Shown: positions 5,800-20,809 of the stretch, in pieces | Numbering within the stretch: the stretch's first letter is position 1 | Layout of the letters: every line of letters begins with the position of its first letter | Virus record (IMG/VR): IMGVR_UViG_3300009080_000017 | Span: 1-47,410 of that record | From: a virus | Direction: 5' to 3' (one strand) | DNA: 47,410 nucleotides | Translations under genes and position numbers: made by a program | The notes under the pieces: model-generated | The model's database searches: none | The model's input: only the letters and a program-made list of their open reading frames with translations | What the model was told of the DNA's origin: nothing

Positions 5800-5836
5800 C
5801 TTCGACCCTTAGACGAGGGGGCTGAGTTTTTATTCA
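5800..5836 (-). promoter_or_regulatory. Cassette copy 20
   Basis: TGAATA at 5831-5836 and CGTCTAAGG with CGTC at 5812-5815, spacer 15 bp. It precedes the two coupled genes 5538-5777 and 5281-5541. Confidence 0.75.
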
Positions 5837-6195
5837 AAAGAATATTTTTGGTCTGTCAGTGTGTCGGGGATAGAAAGAATCTTTACCTCCCCAAAATAAT
5901 TATTACGGAACAGATATATTCCGCTGGGCCCCAAGTAGTATTTCTCTGCGGTGATTTGCCAATAACTATTGTACGCTTCCAACCAATACACCCTTGCAAG
6001 ACCCTGCGGGATCATAATGTATGATCCCGCAGGGTCGATATGCGCCGCCGAGTAGCCCTGCGTCTGACATGCTCGAAGGGGATGGATGGGCTCCGCTTGC
6101 GGGCGCTCGGGTTCTGTCGATAATACAATGCCCTTACCGAGAGTCGAACTCCCCAAAAGAGCGCCTTTAATGTCTCTCATACTCTTATAGCCCAT
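5830..6195 (-). CDS. Hypothetical protein (about 121 aa), start uncertain
   Basis: The open frame reaches 6276, but its first part is cassette copy 21. The best ribosome site (AGGAGG) serves an ATG at 6227 in another frame, which encodes only 15 codons and ends in ATGA at the in-frame ATG 6180 (MRDIKGALLG). Either a short coupled leader or a frameshift near 6180-6227 is possible. I give the in-frame ATG at 6195 (MGYKSMRDIKG). The body contains SYIMIPQGLARVYWLEAYNS and several aromatic strands; family unknown. Confidence 0.45.
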   Translation of the reverse strand: MGYKSMRDIKGALLGSSTLGKGIVLSTEPERPQAEPIHPLRACQTQGYSAAHIDPAGSYIMIPQGLARVYWLEAYNSYWQITAEKYYLGPSGIYLFRNNYFGEVKILSIPDTLTDQKYSFE

Positions 6196-6232
6196 TCGAA
6201 ACGCGACCTCTTCAGGACCCCACCCATTGTCG

Positions 6233-6269
6233 TTGCCTCCTTTAGACGAGGGGGCTGAGTTTTTATTCA
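6233..6269 (-). promoter_or_regulatory. Cassette copy 21
   Basis: TGAATA at 6264-6269 and CGTCTAAAGGAGG with CGTC at 6245-6248, spacer 15 bp. Box 1 supplies the TGA stop of the gene at 6267-6605, and the 3' side supplies a full AGGAGG ribosome site. Confidence 0.7.
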
Positions 6270-6605
6270 AAACCATTCAGGTCTTGGTGTCAAACGCAGC
6301 GAAGCACGTCCGTTGAGGGTGCCTTGAGGGTGATGTTGCTGATCCTCACCCTGATCTATATGGCCATCATCAAGATAGAGCAAATACTCAAGGCCATACA
6401 ACTCTTGAGTTATTGCTTCAAGCCGAAGCTCGGCACGCTCGACCGCTATTAAACAAGTGTCCTCCCCTTCATTCCTGCACATGACAATATCGTCGAAGAG
6501 ATCACAGGAAACTTCCTCTAATTCATCTAGTGAAATTAAAAACTGTTCCAGTGCTGATTTTTGCCGACGTAGATATTTAATTTTTTGTAACATTGCAGAT
6601 GACAT
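6267..6605 (-). CDS. Hypothetical coiled-coil-like protein (112 aa)
   Basis: ATG at 6605 overlaps the TAA of the upstream gene (TAATG) and has GGAG in range. The first 75 residues (MLQKIKYLRRQKSALEQFLI and onward) form long amphipathic helices. The stop TGA lies in box 1 of cassette copy 21. The tail LNGRASLRLTPRPEWF is unlike the rest. Function unknown. Confidence 0.6.
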   Translation of the reverse strand: MSSAMLQKIKYLRRQKSALEQFLISLDELEEVSCDLFDDIVMCRNEGEDTCLIAVERAELRLEAITQELYGLEYLLYLDDGHIDQGEDQQHHPQGTLNGRASLRLTPRPEWF

Positions 6606-7606
6606 TATTTATCTCCTTTCTTCTTTTTCTTTTTGATGCCTCGAATCTTTTTGATGATGGCTTCCTCAACTAATATGGGTTTTGTATCGCCAGCGACAAT
6701 GACTTTATATAGTTTATTGCCTCTGCGATGGCCTACGGGAATTCTCGGATTGATCCCGATGATAGTCAAAAATCCCCGACGAGATTTTTGCATGTCCTTT
6801 AACCTATCGAGTTCTCTCCAGCCGAGCTCATTACAAGTGCTAATGCCTTCGCTAAAGATTTTAAGGTGAAATGAGTTTGAATAAGCAGACCTTAATTCTA
6901 CCATATCACCTAGTTTATATTTAGGCTCAGCAAACCATCCTTCTGCAATTTTGTGGAGTCTAGCTAGTTCCCTAACGTACTCTCTGAGCATAGGCACCAC
7001 GTGCCCGTCGCCAAGGAAATCTGTCTTGGAGCCAAAATGATACGAAATACTACATCCATACCGATCGGTACCGGTAAGAAATTCCATCGCCTTTTTATAT
7101 TTGGTTGACCAATTTTGCTTCCACTCCTTAACCCACGCCTTCCGATTTTCAATCGCTTTTTCTGAAAATAGAAGAAGCAGTCTTTTAGCTTCCCTGACCT
7201 GAAAATACGAGGGAGCGACACCAAACATTGCGCGCGAGGAGGGGTCTCTCTGAGACTTTTCTATTCCTAGTCGCCCTAAAAGAGAATCAATCTCAATCTG
7301 AAGACGCCTAAAATCCACTGCACGGTTGCCCACCCAGAAAGGACCCTCGTTCTTTTCTCTCTGTGGATCACCCTCGGTTTCAAGACTGTGTGCTTCAGTG
7401 TCATAAAAGAAATAAAGGTCTTTATTTTCGATAAGCGATTCTCTTAGTTTGAGAACTAAGTCGTAGAGAGCCGCTGTGTTTTGGGATGCTTTAGAGAACG
7501 ACTGCGATTCATAATCTTCATAGTAGATTGCAGTTGTTGGGAGAAGTTTTGAAACTGCGGGGAATTTTTCGCGGAATTTTTCGCTATCGAGTAAGTCAAA
7601 ATGCAC
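6605..7606 (-). CDS. Hypothetical protein (333 aa), paralogue of 12736-13668
   Basis: GTG at 7606 has GAGG at correct spacing. The C-terminal two thirds align by eye with the 12736-13668 product: NRKAWVKEWKQNWSTKYKKA / LRKAWTTQWKTNYSKYEKS, FLTGTDRYGCSISYHFGS / FLTSCVDRWGQPISYFFSA, a W/YLSEPKY motif, and the end HRRGNKLYKVIV...LVEEAIIKKIRGIKKKKKKG. The lysine-rich tail suggests nucleic acid or membrane contact (inference). Neither copy matches a family I know. In both cases a small coupled gene follows immediately. Confidence 0.7.
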   Translation of the reverse strand: MHFDLLDSEKFREKFPAVSKLLPTTAIYYEDYESQSFSKASQNTAALYDLVLKLRESLIENKDLYFFYDTEAHSLETEGDPQREKNEGPFWVGNRAVDFRRLQIEIDSLLGRLGIEKSQRDPSSRAMFGVAPSYFQVREAKRLLLLFSEKAIENRKAWVKEWKQNWSTKYKKAMEFLTGTDRYGCSISYHFGSKTDFLGDGHVVPMLREYVRELARLHKIAEGWFAEPKYKLGDMVELRSAYSNSFHLKIFSEGISTCNELGWRELDRLKDMQKSRRGFLTIIGINPRIPVGHRRGNKLYKVIVAGDTKPILVEEAIIKKIRGIKKKKKKGDK

Positions 7607-7670: not shown

Positions 7671-7719
7671 AAAAAGCTTTCGACACTACTGCGGTGGGAG
7701 TTATTTCAGGTTCCCAAAG

Positions 7720-8052
7720 TGGAGGTGGCGGGAGTCGAACCCGCGTCCAGCATAATGAGACATCAAAGTCATTCACAGGCTTGGTTAATTTTATCTATAA
7801 CAAATCAACAAAGATAGGTGATAATAAAACAGAGGGAATCGCCATAACCCCTGAGTTTGTTTGATTTTTACAACTTGTCTGTTGATTGCCCCTCTTCGTT
7901 AAGATGGTTTGGGGCGACCACCCTCACGCTGCCAATGCAACTTGTGAGTAAGAGTCGTTGTTGTTTGCAACTATTGTTTTGGTTCTTTGTGGAGATACCA
8001 TTCCAGCCTGCACTCTTATGTTCTTTTATACTGTCGAAACCAAAGCACCCCC
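7720..8052 (-). ncRNA. ssrA: tmRNA (trans-translation RNA), one-piece
   Basis: The 5' end GGGGGTG (8052-8046) pairs with CACCTCC near the 3' end, and GGTTTCGACAG follows the 5' arm as in bacterial tmRNAs. The 3' end is the usual T-arm (GGACGCGGGTTCGACTCC) and acceptor, with discriminator A at 7720; CCA is not encoded. The tag frame begins with resume codon GCA at 7968 and ends TGA at 7924, giving ANNNDSYSQVALAA, whose ALAA end is the classical proteolysis signal. Length is about 333 nt. It belongs to an RNA cluster with two tRNAs upstream. Confidence 0.93.
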
Positions 8053-8090: not shown

Positions 8091-8141
8091 TGATAGAATC
8101 TCCGCTCCACCTCTTAGACGACAGAGCGGAGATTCTATTCA
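8091..8141 (-). promoter_or_regulatory. Cassette copy 23 with long perfect stem, upstream of tmRNA
   Basis: TGAATA at 8136-8141 and CGTCTAAGAGG with CGTC at 8117-8120, spacer 15 bp. The inverted repeat is unusually long: AGAATCTCCGCTC pairs perfectly with GAGCGGAGATTCT (13 bp), and box 1 lies in the outer part of the arm. It probably drives or processes the tmRNA about 40 bp downstream. Confidence 0.8.
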
Positions 8142-8368
8142 AACAAAACTCTTATTCTTTTGTGCATCACCCTCCTTTGCCCTTGGTTATCAAAACTGTA
8201 AGGGCTCAGATATAGTGTTTTAAGCACTCGCTCTCCTGTATCCTTCGTGAGAACATTGACAGGTGCATAGAATAAAAGAGGTTCCAGTGGGCGCTCACAG
8301 CAACAAAAAAGGAGGTTTTGTCTGTATAGACTCTTGCCCTTGCCCTTGTCATTGGGCTCTGGAACCAG
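8135..8368 (-). pseudogene. Possible start-less coding remnant
   Basis: One minus frame is open from the tRNA at 8369 to a TAG at 8135 that lies in box 1 of cassette copy 23. It reads ...PNDKGKGKSLYRQNLL, then ERPLEPLLFYAPVNVLTKDTG and ends HKRIRVLFE, which looks protein-like. It has no ATG or GTG start and no ribosome site. It may be a gene fragment cut by insertion of the tRNA, or chance. Otherwise 8142-8368 shows no feature. Confidence 0.25.
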
Positions 8369-8442
8369 TGGACCCAGAAGGAGTTGAACCTTCGACCGAC
8401 CCGTTATGAGCGGGTTGCTCTAACCAACTGAGCTATGGGTCC
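8369..8442 (-). tRNA. tRNA with CAU anticodon (Met or Ile2)
   Basis: A full cloverleaf is visible: acceptor GGACCCA/TGGGTCC, D-arm AGCTCAGTTGGTTAGAGC, anticodon loop CTCATAA closed by ACCCG/CGGGT, and T-arm GAAGGTTCAACTCCTTC. The CAU anticodon fits elongator Met or, after lysidine modification, Ile (AUA). The sequence alone does not decide. CCA is not encoded. Confidence 0.95.
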
Positions 8443-8548: not shown

Positions 8549-8622
8549 TAGCACTGGTGGGACTCGAACCCACACTTGACGGATTTTAAGTCCGTTGCCT
8601 CTACCTATTGGGCTACAGTGCC
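8549..8622 (-). tRNA. tRNA with UAA anticodon (Leu-type, short variable arm)
   Basis: Acceptor GGCACTG/CAGTGCT (one terminal G-U), D-arm AGCCCAATAGGTAGAGGC, anticodon loop CTTAAAA closed by ACGGA/TCCGT, T-arm GTGGGTTCGAGTCCCAC. The anticodon UAA reads UUA (Leu). A standard bacterial tRNA-Leu has a long variable arm; this one has only about five bases there, a form that does occur among phage tRNAs. CCA is not encoded. Confidence 0.9.
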
Positions 8623-12493: not shown

Positions 12494-12739
12494 AAGCTTA
12501 TCATTGTCCAGTAGATAATTAAGATAGTCTACTTTGCGAGCGCTGGTTTGTTCTAGTTCATTGGCTCTCTCCAACAACTCACGCGATTGCCACGTGTGGT
12601 TACTGAAGATAAACACATCGGCAGATGATGTCCCGATTTCCACCTGAGTGTTCTCTTCAATCGTCATTGCCTCGCGCCTAAGTAACCGCTGGTGGTGTTC
12701 GACATGTTCAAGATGTTCTATGAGCAGGTTTCTCATCAT
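12491..12739 (-). CDS. Hypothetical protein (82 aa)
   Basis: ATG at 12739 overlaps the TGA of the upstream gene (ATGA) and has AGGAAGGG before it. Helical, charged sequence starting MMRNLLIEHLEHVEHHQRLL. It is in the same position relative to its upstream gene as 6267-6605 is to 6605-7606. No family is recognised. Confidence 0.55.
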   Translation of the reverse strand: MMRNLLIEHLEHVEHHQRLLRREAMTIEENTQVEIGTSSADVFIFSNHTWQSRELLERANELEQTSARKVDYLNYLLDNDKL

Positions 12740-13668
12740 TTTCCCTTCCTTTTGACCGCACGGAGTTTCTTGATCAAGGACTCTTCTATCAGAAATGGGC
12801 GAGGGTCTTGCCTTGAGAATACCGTGTACAATTTGTTTCCTTTGCGGTCTCCCCGAGGCGCTATAGCGTCGACCCCTATGATAACCACGAACGCCCTCTC
12901 TCCGAAGCCCGCTATCTTACGCCATCTCCGGTAATCACTGCGAGCCAGCTTGAGGCCCTTGACGTTAAAAATCCTGAGTTCATAGTTTGAACTCCTCAAT
13001 GGCCTAAGTTCCACTATGTCTTCTACTGCATATTTGGGTTCGCTCAGGTACCCTTCTGCTCTTTTTATATGTCGGGGGAAAGCCCTACAATATGTTTCGA
13101 AAGGGGGTGCGAAGTTCTCATCGAACTTCGCACCGTTTGCAGAAAAGAAATACGATATGGGCTGACCCCATCGATCGACACAACTAGTCAGAAAATACAT
13201 AGACTTTTCGTATTTTGAGTAGTTGGTTTTCCACTGGGTGGTCCACGCCTTTCTCAAGTTCAACGCCTCTGGGCTGTACAATTTCGCGATAGAGTTCAAA
13301 TCTCTTACGTCAAAATAGCTAAGGACCTCCTGAGGCGTCTGTAAGATATTCTCTATTGTTTCGAGATACCCAGCCCCTTTATCACTTTGAATAGTGCCCG
13401 GCTTCGGCGTCGCTTGGGTGTATAAATAGTCGTTGTCTTTTACTCGCTTAATCAACGCCCTGAGGTCTGCCTCAGTGGGCGTTACGTTACAATGATAGGA
13501 ATATATAGGCGTGTCGTTGGGCACACTAGCTTTGGCATGTTCGGCTTCTTCAGTAGTTAATTCTCCCCAAGACTCCCACTCATCAAAAGATATAAGAGAC
13601 CTGACTGTTGGGAATTTTTTTTTCATGAGCCTTATTGCTTGAACATGGATGTGCGATGTATACGACAT
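12736..13668 (-). CDS. Hypothetical protein (310 aa), paralogue of 6605-7606
   Basis: ATG at 13668 has GAGG in range. It shares with the 6605-7606 product the RKAWTTQWKTNYSKYEKSMYF-type block, FLTxxxDRxGxxISYxF, the (F/L)SEPKY(A/K) motif followed by EDIVELRPLRSSNYELRIF, and a C-terminal GNKLYTVFSRQDPRPFLIEE then SLIKKLRAVKRKGK. The conserved order suggests one fold with a basic tail. Function unknown. A coupled small gene follows. Confidence 0.7.
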   Translation of the reverse strand: MSYTSHIHVQAIRLMKKKFPTVRSLISFDEWESWGELTTEEAEHAKASVPNDTPIYSYHCNVTPTEADLRALIKRVKDNDYLYTQATPKPGTIQSDKGAGYLETIENILQTPQEVLSYFDVRDLNSIAKLYSPEALNLRKAWTTQWKTNYSKYEKSMYFLTSCVDRWGQPISYFFSANGAKFDENFAPPFETYCRAFPRHIKRAEGYLSEPKYAVEDIVELRPLRSSNYELRIFNVKGLKLARSDYRRWRKIAGFGERAFVVIIGVDAIAPRGDRKGNKLYTVFSRQDPRPFLIEESLIKKLRAVKRKGK

Positions 13669-19195: not shown

Positions 19196-20761
19196 TTATA
19201 CCTCCACAATTGCGTGATTTGTTGTTATAAGTACTGAGGCCGCCGACACTGCGTTCTGTAATGCAGTTCTTGTCACTTTAACGGGATCAACGATCCCCAC
19301 CTCCAATAAATCCACCACCTGTCTTTTTGAGAAATCATAACCAACAAACCCTGAGTTTTTAACCTCCGAAAGGATTAAGTCCGGTGACTCACCAGCATTT
19401 TCTGCCATTTGCCGAAGAGGAACTTGAGCCGCCGCCTTTACGATATTGACGCCTATCTGTTGCTCTTCGCTCTCCACTTCAACTTCCAGAGTATTAGCAA
19501 TTTTAGCCAGTGTCGCTCCGCCTCCTGCAACGATACCCTCCAGTTGCGCAGCTTTTACTGCGCTGAGTGCGTCTACAATTCGATGTTTTTTCTCAATTGC
19601 TTCGACTTCAGTTCTGGCTCCAACATTGATGACTGCAATACCAGCAGCCAACCTGCCAATGCGTTCTTGTATCTTTTCACACTCGTTTAAATTATCCGTC
19701 TCCTCGATCTCCCGCTTCAACGAATCAATTCTTGCATCAATTTTATCCGGTTCTCCTGCTCCGCCAACTATCACCGTGGTCGATTTTGAAACTTCGATGG
19801 TGTCAGAAGTTCCGAGGTCTGTGAGTTTAGCCGATCTCAAGCTCCTACCCGATTCCCTAGTAATGAACTCGGCCCCCGTAGCAACAGCTAGGTCATGTAA
19901 AATGTTCCTTCTTTCGTCGCCATACCTCGGTGCTTTTACCGCGACCGTCTTTATAGCTCCCCTGACTACGTTTACAATCAATGTTGCCAGCGCTTCAGGA
20001 GATATATCCTCTGAGATGATTATCAGCGGTCTACTAGCCCTCGATGCTTGCCCCATAATTGATTCGATATCTTTTAACACCTCAATCTTATAATCTGTAA
20101 CTAGGATAAGGGGATTCTCAAACTTTGCCACTCCCCGCTGAGGGTCTGTTATGAAGCGTGGTGAAGCGAACCCAGAACTAAACCTGAAACCTTCTTTTAT
20201 TTCCAAAGAGGTCTCAGAGGATCTTGAGTCTTCTATAGTTATGCTTCCATCTTTTCCGACTAAATCAACCGCTGTGGCAATCATCGCGGCGATAGTTTTA
20301 TCGCCGTTTGCCGAAACGAAAGCGACAGACTCTATGTCTTCTTTGCTTCTAATTGGCCTCGCTAGCTCTTTTAACTCACTAATTATTTTAGCAGCCGCTT
20401 TATCCATCCCCCGTTTGAGTTCAACAGGGGATAATCCCGCCACAAGGTATTTTTGAGATTCAGCCAATAAAGCGCGAGACAAAACGGCAGCAGTCGTTGT
20501 ACCATCTCCAGCATCAATATTCGTTTTCTCTGAAGCCTGTTTAATAATTTGGGCACCAAGATTTTCAAAAGGATCTTCGAGGTCTACGTTTTTTGCGACA
20601 GTGACTCCATCTTTTGTAATGATGGGGTTCCCACCTTTATTGTGAAGGATCACATTTCGCCCTCTCGGACCCATAGTTGAAGCAACATTGTCTGCGAGTA
20701 CGTTAGCCCCCCGAAGAATTTTTTCTCTTAATTCCAACCCTGATTTAAAAAGTTTTGGCAT
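19196..20761 (-). CDS. groEL: Chaperonin GroEL (521 aa)
   Basis: The start MPKLFKSGLELREKILRG at 20761 has GGAGG four bases upstream; the longer frame to 20785 overlaps the promoter. GroEL hallmarks are present: STMGPRGRNVI, ITKDGVTVAK, the nucleotide motif GDGTTTAAVL, EGIVAGGGATL, and the apical RxPLIIISEDISPEAL. The C-terminus ends ITTNHAIVEV and lacks the GGM tail. Length is slightly below the bacterial ~540. It should fold phage proteins; a GroES-like gene lies 13 kb away (33753-34052). Confidence 0.97.
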   Translation of the reverse strand: MPKLFKSGLELREKILRGANVLADNVASTMGPRGRNVILHNKGGNPIITKDGVTVAKNVDLEDPFENLGAQIIKQASEKTNIDAGDGTTTAAVLSRALLAESQKYLVAGLSPVELKRGMDKAAAKIISELKELARPIRSKEDIESVAFVSANGDKTIAAMIATAVDLVGKDGSITIEDSRSSETSLEIKEGFRFSSGFASPRFITDPQRGVAKFENPLILVTDYKIEVLKDIESIMGQASRASRPLIIISEDISPEALATLIVNVVRGAIKTVAVKAPRYGDERRNILHDLAVATGAEFITRESGRSLRSAKLTDLGTSDTIEVSKSTTVIVGGAGEPDKIDARIDSLKREIEETDNLNECEKIQERIGRLAAGIAVINVGARTEVEAIEKKHRIVDALSAVKAAQLEGIVAGGGATLAKIANTLEVEVESEEQQIGVNIVKAAAQVPLRQMAENAGESPDLILSEVKNSGFVGYDFSKRQVVDLLEVGIVDPVKVTRTALQNAVSAASVLITTNHAIVEV

Positions 20762-20780
20762 TGTTCCTCCAAATAAGAAA

Positions 20781-20809
20781 GCCATGTAGTGTACATTATA
20801 CTACATGGC
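20781..20809. promoter_or_regulatory. Operator-like inverted repeat over the groEL -10 box
   Basis: GCCATGTAGT and ACTACATGGC are perfect 10-bp arms separated by 9 bp, and the right-hand part contains the -10 box. The 10-9-10 geometry resembles CIRCE heat-shock operators (9-bp arms, 9-bp spacer) but the sequence is different. Confidence 0.7.

What the first reader, a model, noticed from the sequence alone, without database searches (positions are those of the whole stretch)
7720..8052. Phage-encoded tmRNA with tag ANNNDSYSQVALAA
Acceptor pairing, TTTCGAC motif, T-arm and a clean 14-residue tag frame with TGA stop make the call strong. tmRNA genes are rare in phages. It may rescue ribosomes on degraded host mRNA or retag products during infection. 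It lacks encoded CCA.
Basis: partly seen in the sequence, partly recalled or inferred. Interest (0 to 1): 0.75.

Follow-up and report, generated by a model that had tools for sequence, protein, structure and literature searches.

The report
Phage-carried ribosome-rescue RNA (tmRNA) gene
This phage carries a complete one-piece tmRNA gene, an RNA that frees stuck ribosomes and tags the unfinished protein for destruction; it belongs to a little-known lineage found almost only in phages and appears to have its own phage promoter, but phage tmRNAs as such are already known.

Summary
Minus strand 8052-7720 is a complete one-piece tmRNA (ARAGORN; Rfam RF00023, 120.6 bits against a cut-off of 47) with tag ANNNDSYSQVALAA, a G3·U70 alanine-identity pair, an intact T arm, and helices for all expected pseudoknots. 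The stems covary in phage relatives. CCA is not encoded, as in the two neighbouring tRNAs.

(1) It belongs to a 23-member tmRNA clade (support 0.96). All members are viral contigs except one second copy in a WOR-3 bacterium MAG. The tag signature hit 15 viral contigs but only two of 84,980 species genomes, one of them a tmRNA.
(2) Eleven of 20 tmRNA-bearing viral records encode a relative of this phage's DnaE polymerase. The gene is patchy on the DnaE tree, and the closest relative lacks it.
(3) The clade appears to have an extra pseudoknot.
(4) A promoter-like element (TGAATAA-N14-CGTCTAA; 23 copies, coding strand only) lies directly upstream.
(5) No SmpB gene was found, so the host must supply SmpB.

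Most likely it supplements host trans-translation during infection. Phage tmRNAs are known (about 2.3% of phage genomes), so this is a new member of a known kind. The tag does not identify the host.

The parts
7720..8052 (-). one-piece tmRNA (ssrA) gene, mature 5' end G8052 to discriminator A7720, no encoded CCA
   Evidence: ARAGORN and RF00023 120.6 bits
8046..8052 (-). acceptor stem 5' strand GGGGGUG; G3 pairs with U (alanyl-tRNA synthetase identity), invariant in 10 homologues
7721..7727 (-). acceptor stem 3' strand CACCUCC, with U70 opposite G3
7728..7744 (-). T arm GCGGG UUCGACU CCCGC
7924..7968 (-). tag reading frame ANNNDSYSQVALAA plus TGA, resume codon GCA after UAGUU
7980..8005 (-). 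pseudoknot 1: P3 UGGA/UCCA and P4 UGGU/ACCA
   Evidence: P3 is paired in all 10 homologues, while P4 is 4 pairs here but only 2 pairs in most relatives
7888..7922 (-). pseudoknot 2: P6 GGUGGU/ACCAUC and P7 GCCCC/GGGGC
   Evidence: P6 paired in 10/10; H-type pseudoknot found in 15/15 homologues scanned
7863..7884 (-). small pseudoknot 3: CAAC/GUUG plus a short second helix (2 pairs here, 3 in most relatives)
7817..7855 (-). pseudoknot 4: P10 (CAGGGG/CCCUCUG, bulged U) and P11 (GGCGAU/AUCACC, one C.A mismatch)
   Evidence: strong covariation in homologues, 9 of 12 pairs with changes on both sides
7784..7817 (-). fifth, additional pseudoknot: CUAU/AUAG and UUGAUUU/AAAUUAA
   Evidence: helix 14: 95.7% paired, 4 pairs with changes on both sides; helix 13: 80% paired, no covariation
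8114..8141 (-). promoter-like element TGAATAG-N14-CGTCTAA directly upstream of the tmRNA
   Evidence: one of 23 copies with fixed 14-base spacing, all on the coding strand
8093..8138 (-). 15-bp perfect inverted repeat (ATAGAATCTCCGCTC / GAGCGGAGATTCTAT, 16-base loop) centred on the CGTCTAA element
   Evidence: role unknown
8368..8442 (-). tRNA-Met (CAT), no encoded CCA, upstream of the tmRNA
8549..8622 (-). tRNA-Leu (TAA), no encoded CCA, upstream of the tmRNA

Best explanation
The locus is a working phage-borne tmRNA gene. From a phage promoter at 8141-8114 the phage makes a precursor. RNase P trims it at 8052, and host enzymes trim the 3' end, add CCA and charge it with alanine (G3-U70). With host SmpB and EF-Tu it enters ribosomes stalled on broken mRNA, resumes translation at GCA, adds (A)ANNNDSYSQVALAA and stops at UGA. 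The ...ALAA end sends the product to host ClpXP-type proteases. During infection this keeps ribosomes free while host and phage mRNAs are being cut, and it keeps rescue going if the host ssrA gene is destroyed. Shown here: gene anatomy, conservation of structure and of tag ends in phage relatives, linkage to one phage polymerase lineage, and the promoter-like element. Inferred from established tmRNA biology: processing, charging, SmpB use, tagging, and benefit to the phage.
For: RF00023 at 120.6 bits over the whole model, plus ARAGORN. All alanine-charging and resume elements are present, and G3-U70 is invariant in 10/10 homologues. Stems covary: 33 pairs have changes on both sides against 15.9 +/- 2.3 in shuffles. 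In the seven relatives found by T arm alone (L118, L120, L139, L163, L177, L190, L221) the tags keep ANNN and LAA in spite of synonymous codon changes, so the tag frame is under selection as protein. Twenty-three-member clade at 0.96, nearly all viral. Relatives of this phage's DnaE are encoded in 11 of 20 tmRNA-bearing viral records, six of them at 61-63% identity. The upstream element is one of 23 identically spaced coding-strand copies.
Against: No expression data. No SmpB in the window or in 18 related records, so it must work with host SmpB. The closest relative (G042, DnaE 75%) and 49 other DnaE relatives have no detectable tmRNA, so the gene is dispensable for this kind of phage, although those records may be fragments. 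P11 has one mismatch and P9 is short in this copy.
Confidence: 0.78

Rival explanations
1. The phage tmRNA serves mainly to change the fate of tagged proteins: its tag differs from the host tag so that products of interrupted translation go to another protease, are spared, or feed amino-acid recycling.
For: The tag is unlike any in 84,980 species genomes searched by its degenerate DNA pattern. The middle residues vary between phage relatives.
Against: The ends of the tag (A...LAA) are the conserved part, which is what ordinary ClpXP-directed tagging needs. The host tag is unknown, so no difference from it is shown.
Confidence: 0.1
2. It is a passenger or relic: a tmRNA captured from a host and not used by the phage.
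For: Patchy distribution: at least 4-6 gains or losses on the DnaE tree. A WOR-3 MAG carries a copy among cellular genes, so the gene moves between genomes.
Against: Compensatory changes in stems and synonymous changes in tag codons across phage relatives show long-term selection in phages. The clade is nearly phage-only. It sits behind a promoter-like element of its own.
Confidence: 0.07
3. It is an integration-site remnant or a decoy that titrates SmpB, as proposed for the tRNA-like fragment of mycobacteriophage DS6A (PMC4131195).
For: Host ssrA can serve as a prophage integration site (PMC9004378), and tRNA-like fragments can inhibit tmRNA (PMC4131195).
Against: The gene is full length with mRNA-like domain, tag and pseudoknots intact. 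No integrase was met among the proteins scanned, though not every small ORF was scanned.
Confidence: 0.05

Closest known systems
Bacterial one-piece tmRNA (ssrA, Rfam RF00023)
   Same: Complete tRNA-like domain, long P2 helix, pseudoknots, resume codon GCA, tag ending ALAA
   Different: Phage-encoded; no encoded CCA; a fifth pseudoknot after PK4; small PK3; tag pattern not found in species genomes
One-piece tmRNAs of cultured phages (Streptomyces BE cluster, mycobacteriophage Bxz1 group, Bacillus phage G)
   Same: tmRNA gene in large phages, often with tRNAs; Streptomyces BE phages also have a DnaE-like polymerase
   Different: At the nucleotide level only the near-universal T arm and 3' end match; different tags such as ANSNVASAYALAA
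Two-piece tmRNA of marine phage Melnitz and pelagiphages (PMC9004378)
   Same: Phage-encoded tmRNA presumed to use host SmpB
   Different: This one is one-piece, in normal order; no glutamine riboswitch was found by Rfam
Cyanobacterial one-piece tmRNAs with tandem PK4a/PK4b (PMC1168896)
   Same: Two pseudoknots where most tmRNAs have one PK4
   Different: Here a small PK3 is kept as well, giving five; sequence and tag differ
ANNN-tag tmRNA clade in uncultured viral contigs (L118, L139, L163, L177, L190, L191, L234, L242 and others)
   Same: Homologous beyond the universal ends, 67-75% identity over aligned stretches; shared ANNN...LAA tag; several carry a related DnaE
   Different: Most encode CCA; tags differ in the middle; PK1 P4 is longer in the window

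Membership tests
tmRNA (RF00023) | Covariance-model match above the curated cut-off over the whole model | tested here: met
   120.6 bits against 47, model 1-374/374
tmRNA (RF00023) | tRNA-like domain with G3-U70 acceptor stem, TTTCGAC segment and T arm | tested here: met
tmRNA (RF00023) | Pseudoknot 1 and downstream pseudoknots | tested here: met
   PK1, PK2 and PK4 with covariation, PK3 short, and an extra fifth
tmRNA (RF00023) | Tag reading frame with Ala resume codon, hydrophobic C-terminus and stop codon | tested here: met
   ANNNDSYSQVALAA*
tmRNA (RF00023) | Works with SmpB, is alanylated, tags proteins | not testable with these tools
   No SmpB in the window or in 18 related records; the host would have to supply it
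Permuted / two-piece tmRNA (RF04321) | 3' tRNA half encoded upstream of the 5' half | tested here: not met
   The gene is in normal order. The borderline RF04321 hit (47.7 against 47) covers only 8127-7924, the 5' half and tag plus the upstream inverted repeat
Phage ANNN-tag tmRNA clade | Groups with viral tmRNAs rather than cellular ones | tested here: met
   23-member clade, support 0.96; the only non-viral member is a second copy in a WOR-3 MAG. Cellular references in that tree were few (WOR-3 phylum and one Spirosoma)

The most novel reading that the evidence does not exclude
A tmRNA lineage that belongs to phages rather than hosts: inherited within one broad lineage of large DnaE-encoding phages, often lost, driven by a dedicated phage promoter, with its own five-pseudoknot architecture and tag signature, and once transferred back into a bacterial chromosome (WOR-3).
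Probability: 0.5. Interest if true: 0.5.

Novelty: new member of a known kind. Interest (0 to 1): 0.38.

Why it matters
It shows that some large phages carry a tmRNA lineage that is not a recent copy of a host gene, so ribosome rescue may be a selected part of infection rather than a leftover. The relatives give a defined set of phage tmRNAs for testing what phages gain from them. The fixed upstream element gives a concrete, testable promoter for this phage group.

Tried and rejected
Host identification by tag: the degenerate tag pattern gave no hit in genome contigs or viral contigs. A looser pattern gave only a WOR-3 MAG and a chance hit in Spirosoma (no tmRNA at the match) among cellular genomes. 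WOR-3 as host: only the one genome of 80 has a second tmRNA, its flanking genes look cellular rather than phage, and the phage promoter element is absent from 100 genomes of that phylum, so it is a lead only. Permuted tmRNA: rejected. SmpB partner in the phage: none found. tmRNA in the closest relative G042: none by RF00023 or ARAGORN. Sigma-70 promoter at the tmRNA: no site on its strand. Literature search for the CGTCTAA promoter motif: no relevant paper in the titles listed. L350, a viral contig with five copies of the promoter element, shares no detectable protein with the window and has no tmRNA.

Full report
What was checked. The window is a 47,410-base IMG/VR virus record, linear and so probably a fragment. 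It encodes DnaE-type polymerase, DnaB-like helicase, UvsX-like recombinase, ribonucleotide reductase, ThyX, dUTPase, head maturation protease, GroEL and endolysin, so it is a tailed-phage genome. The reported feature is real: ARAGORN calls a tmRNA at 7719-8052 on the minus strand with tag ANNNDSYSQVALAA, and RF00023 matches 7717-8052 over the full model at 120.6 bits (cut-off 47). The mature gene runs from G8052 to discriminator A7720. The next bases are CTT, so CCA is not encoded. The two tRNAs just upstream (Leu 8622-8549, Met 8442-8368) lack it too.

Anatomy. The acceptor stem is GGGGGUG/CACCUCC, with the G3·U70 wobble that directs alanine charging. It is followed by TTTCGAC, a P2 helix, the T arm, the segment UAGUU-GCA (resume codon), 14 tag codons and TGA. 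I wrote out a structure with pseudoknots and counted it on an alignment of ten homologous phage tmRNAs. It has 86.8% paired cells and 33 pairs with changes on both sides. When 3' partners are slid by 1-3 columns it has 38-48% paired cells and 3-11 such pairs. PK1 (P3), PK2 and PK4 are supported, and PK3 is small. PK2 helix P7 was out of register in that alignment. A direct search finds the PK2 H-type knot in 15 of 15 homologues. After PK4 there is a further H-type knot (CUAUC/GAUAG with UCAGUUU/AAACUGA in relatives). One of its helices covaries (4 pairs with changes on both sides); the other is mostly paired but does not covary. Most tmRNAs have four pseudoknots, and one-piece cyanobacterial ones have tandem PK4a/PK4b (PMC1168896), so five is a variation, not a new principle.

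Relatives. The degenerate DNA pattern for the tag is absent from 84,980 species genomes and from other viral contigs, so the tag does not name the host. A looser tag signature gave 15 viral contigs and two cellular genomes, of which only one match is a tmRNA. In a tree of 72 one-piece tmRNAs the window's copy falls in a 23-member clade (support 0.96), made of viral contigs plus one second tmRNA in the WOR-3 MAG CP070664. That MAG has its own, different ssrA, and it is the only one of 80 phylum members with two. The second copy lies among genes without phage hallmarks. Two cautions: part of the clade was found by tag, and the cellular references in the tree were few.

Link to one phage lineage. 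Eleven of 20 tmRNA-bearing viral records encode a relative of this window's DnaE, six at 61-63% identity and the rest near 40%. Yet none of 50 other records found by DnaE has a tmRNA, including the closest one, G042 (136 kb, DnaE 75%, syntenic from window position 14.8 kb to the end). On a DnaE tree of 37 rows the trait needs six changes, and at least four are forced by well-supported branches. The simplest reading is an old phage gene often lost or swapped. Many of these records are fragments, so some absences may be false.

Expression. In the window, TGAATAA-N14-CGTCTAA (with minor variants in the first half) occurs 23 times, always on the coding strand and always with a 14-base spacer; 23 of 24 minus-strand CGTCTAA sites have the partner at exactly this distance. 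Most copies lie 10-50 bases before an ORF start. One copy (8141-8114) lies just before the tmRNA, and no ordinary sigma-70 site lies on the tmRNA strand there. The nearest relative has four copies, and an otherwise unrelated viral contig has five. This looks like a phage promoter, so the tmRNA seems to be under phage control. The arms around CGTCTAA are also partly complementary (sum 149 against a shuffled mean of 124, 0 of 2000 shuffles as high). The tmRNA copy has a perfect 15-bp inverted repeat. That part is unexplained.

Mechanism. The best-supported explanation is ordinary trans-translation with host SmpB, EF-Tu, alanyl-tRNA synthetase and the CCA-adding enzyme. No SmpB was found in the window or in 18 related records. 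Sequence and conservation are shown; processing, charging, tagging and benefit are inferred. In relatives found without use of the tag, the ANNN start and LAA end persist through synonymous codon changes, which argues that the tag is translated and used. Retagging for a special purpose, a relic, or an SmpB decoy (as for DS6A, PMC4131195) are less likely.

Novelty. Phage tmRNAs are known: ten were listed in 2014 (PMC4131195), 402 of 18,146 phage genomes in 2021-22 (PMC9004378), and huge phages carry them, some with SmpB (PMC7162821). In 50,697 annotated phage records only the near-universal 3' end matches this gene. It is a new member, in a new clade, of a known kind.

Noticed in passing
minus strand; CGTCTAA starts at 1487, 2188, 2396, 3349, 3915, 4733, 5151, 5815, 6248, 7649, 8120, 10979, 12134, 12472, 13714, 14079, 14454, 15206, 15559, 29556, 34374, 39793, 45769: Twenty-three copies of a two-part element TGAATAA-N14-CGTCTAA, fixed spacing, coding strand only, mostly just before ORFs; also in L272 (4 copies) and in an unrelated contig L350 (5 copies). 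Probably a phage promoter class not of sigma-70 type; flanking arms often form an inverted repeat.
   Followed up: partly
8549-8622: tRNA-Leu(TAA) is only 74 nt with a short variable loop, unlike the usual long-variable-arm tRNA-Leu; its charging identity is uncertain.
   Followed up: no
L107 (CP070664.1, about 1.266 Mb), G051: A WOR-3 bacterium MAG has a second tmRNA of the phage type (tag ANNNANFDVALAA, identical to viral contig L235) among cellular-looking genes, besides its own ssrA.
   Followed up: partly
1518-1671: Seven tandem copies of a 22-bp repeat (TCTCATGTGCGCGTGGTTTTAT type).
   Followed up: no
6000-6036: Perfect 17-bp inverted repeat with a 3-base loop inside ORF 5830-6276.
   Followed up: no
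6605-7606 and 12736-13668: Two ORFs that look like paralogues by eye (shared W..QWK..Y and FLT..DR.G motifs), without any Pfam or PHROGs match.
   Followed up: no
19196-20785: Phage GroEL, 62% identical to that of the closest relative and 55% to the GroEL of tmRNA-bearing record L242.
   Followed up: partly
L117, L160, L192, L194: Viral tmRNAs with unusually long tags (about 23-24 residues, e.g. DVELSTMTFEDAMAFVGADYALAA), a separate phage tmRNA group.
   Followed up: no
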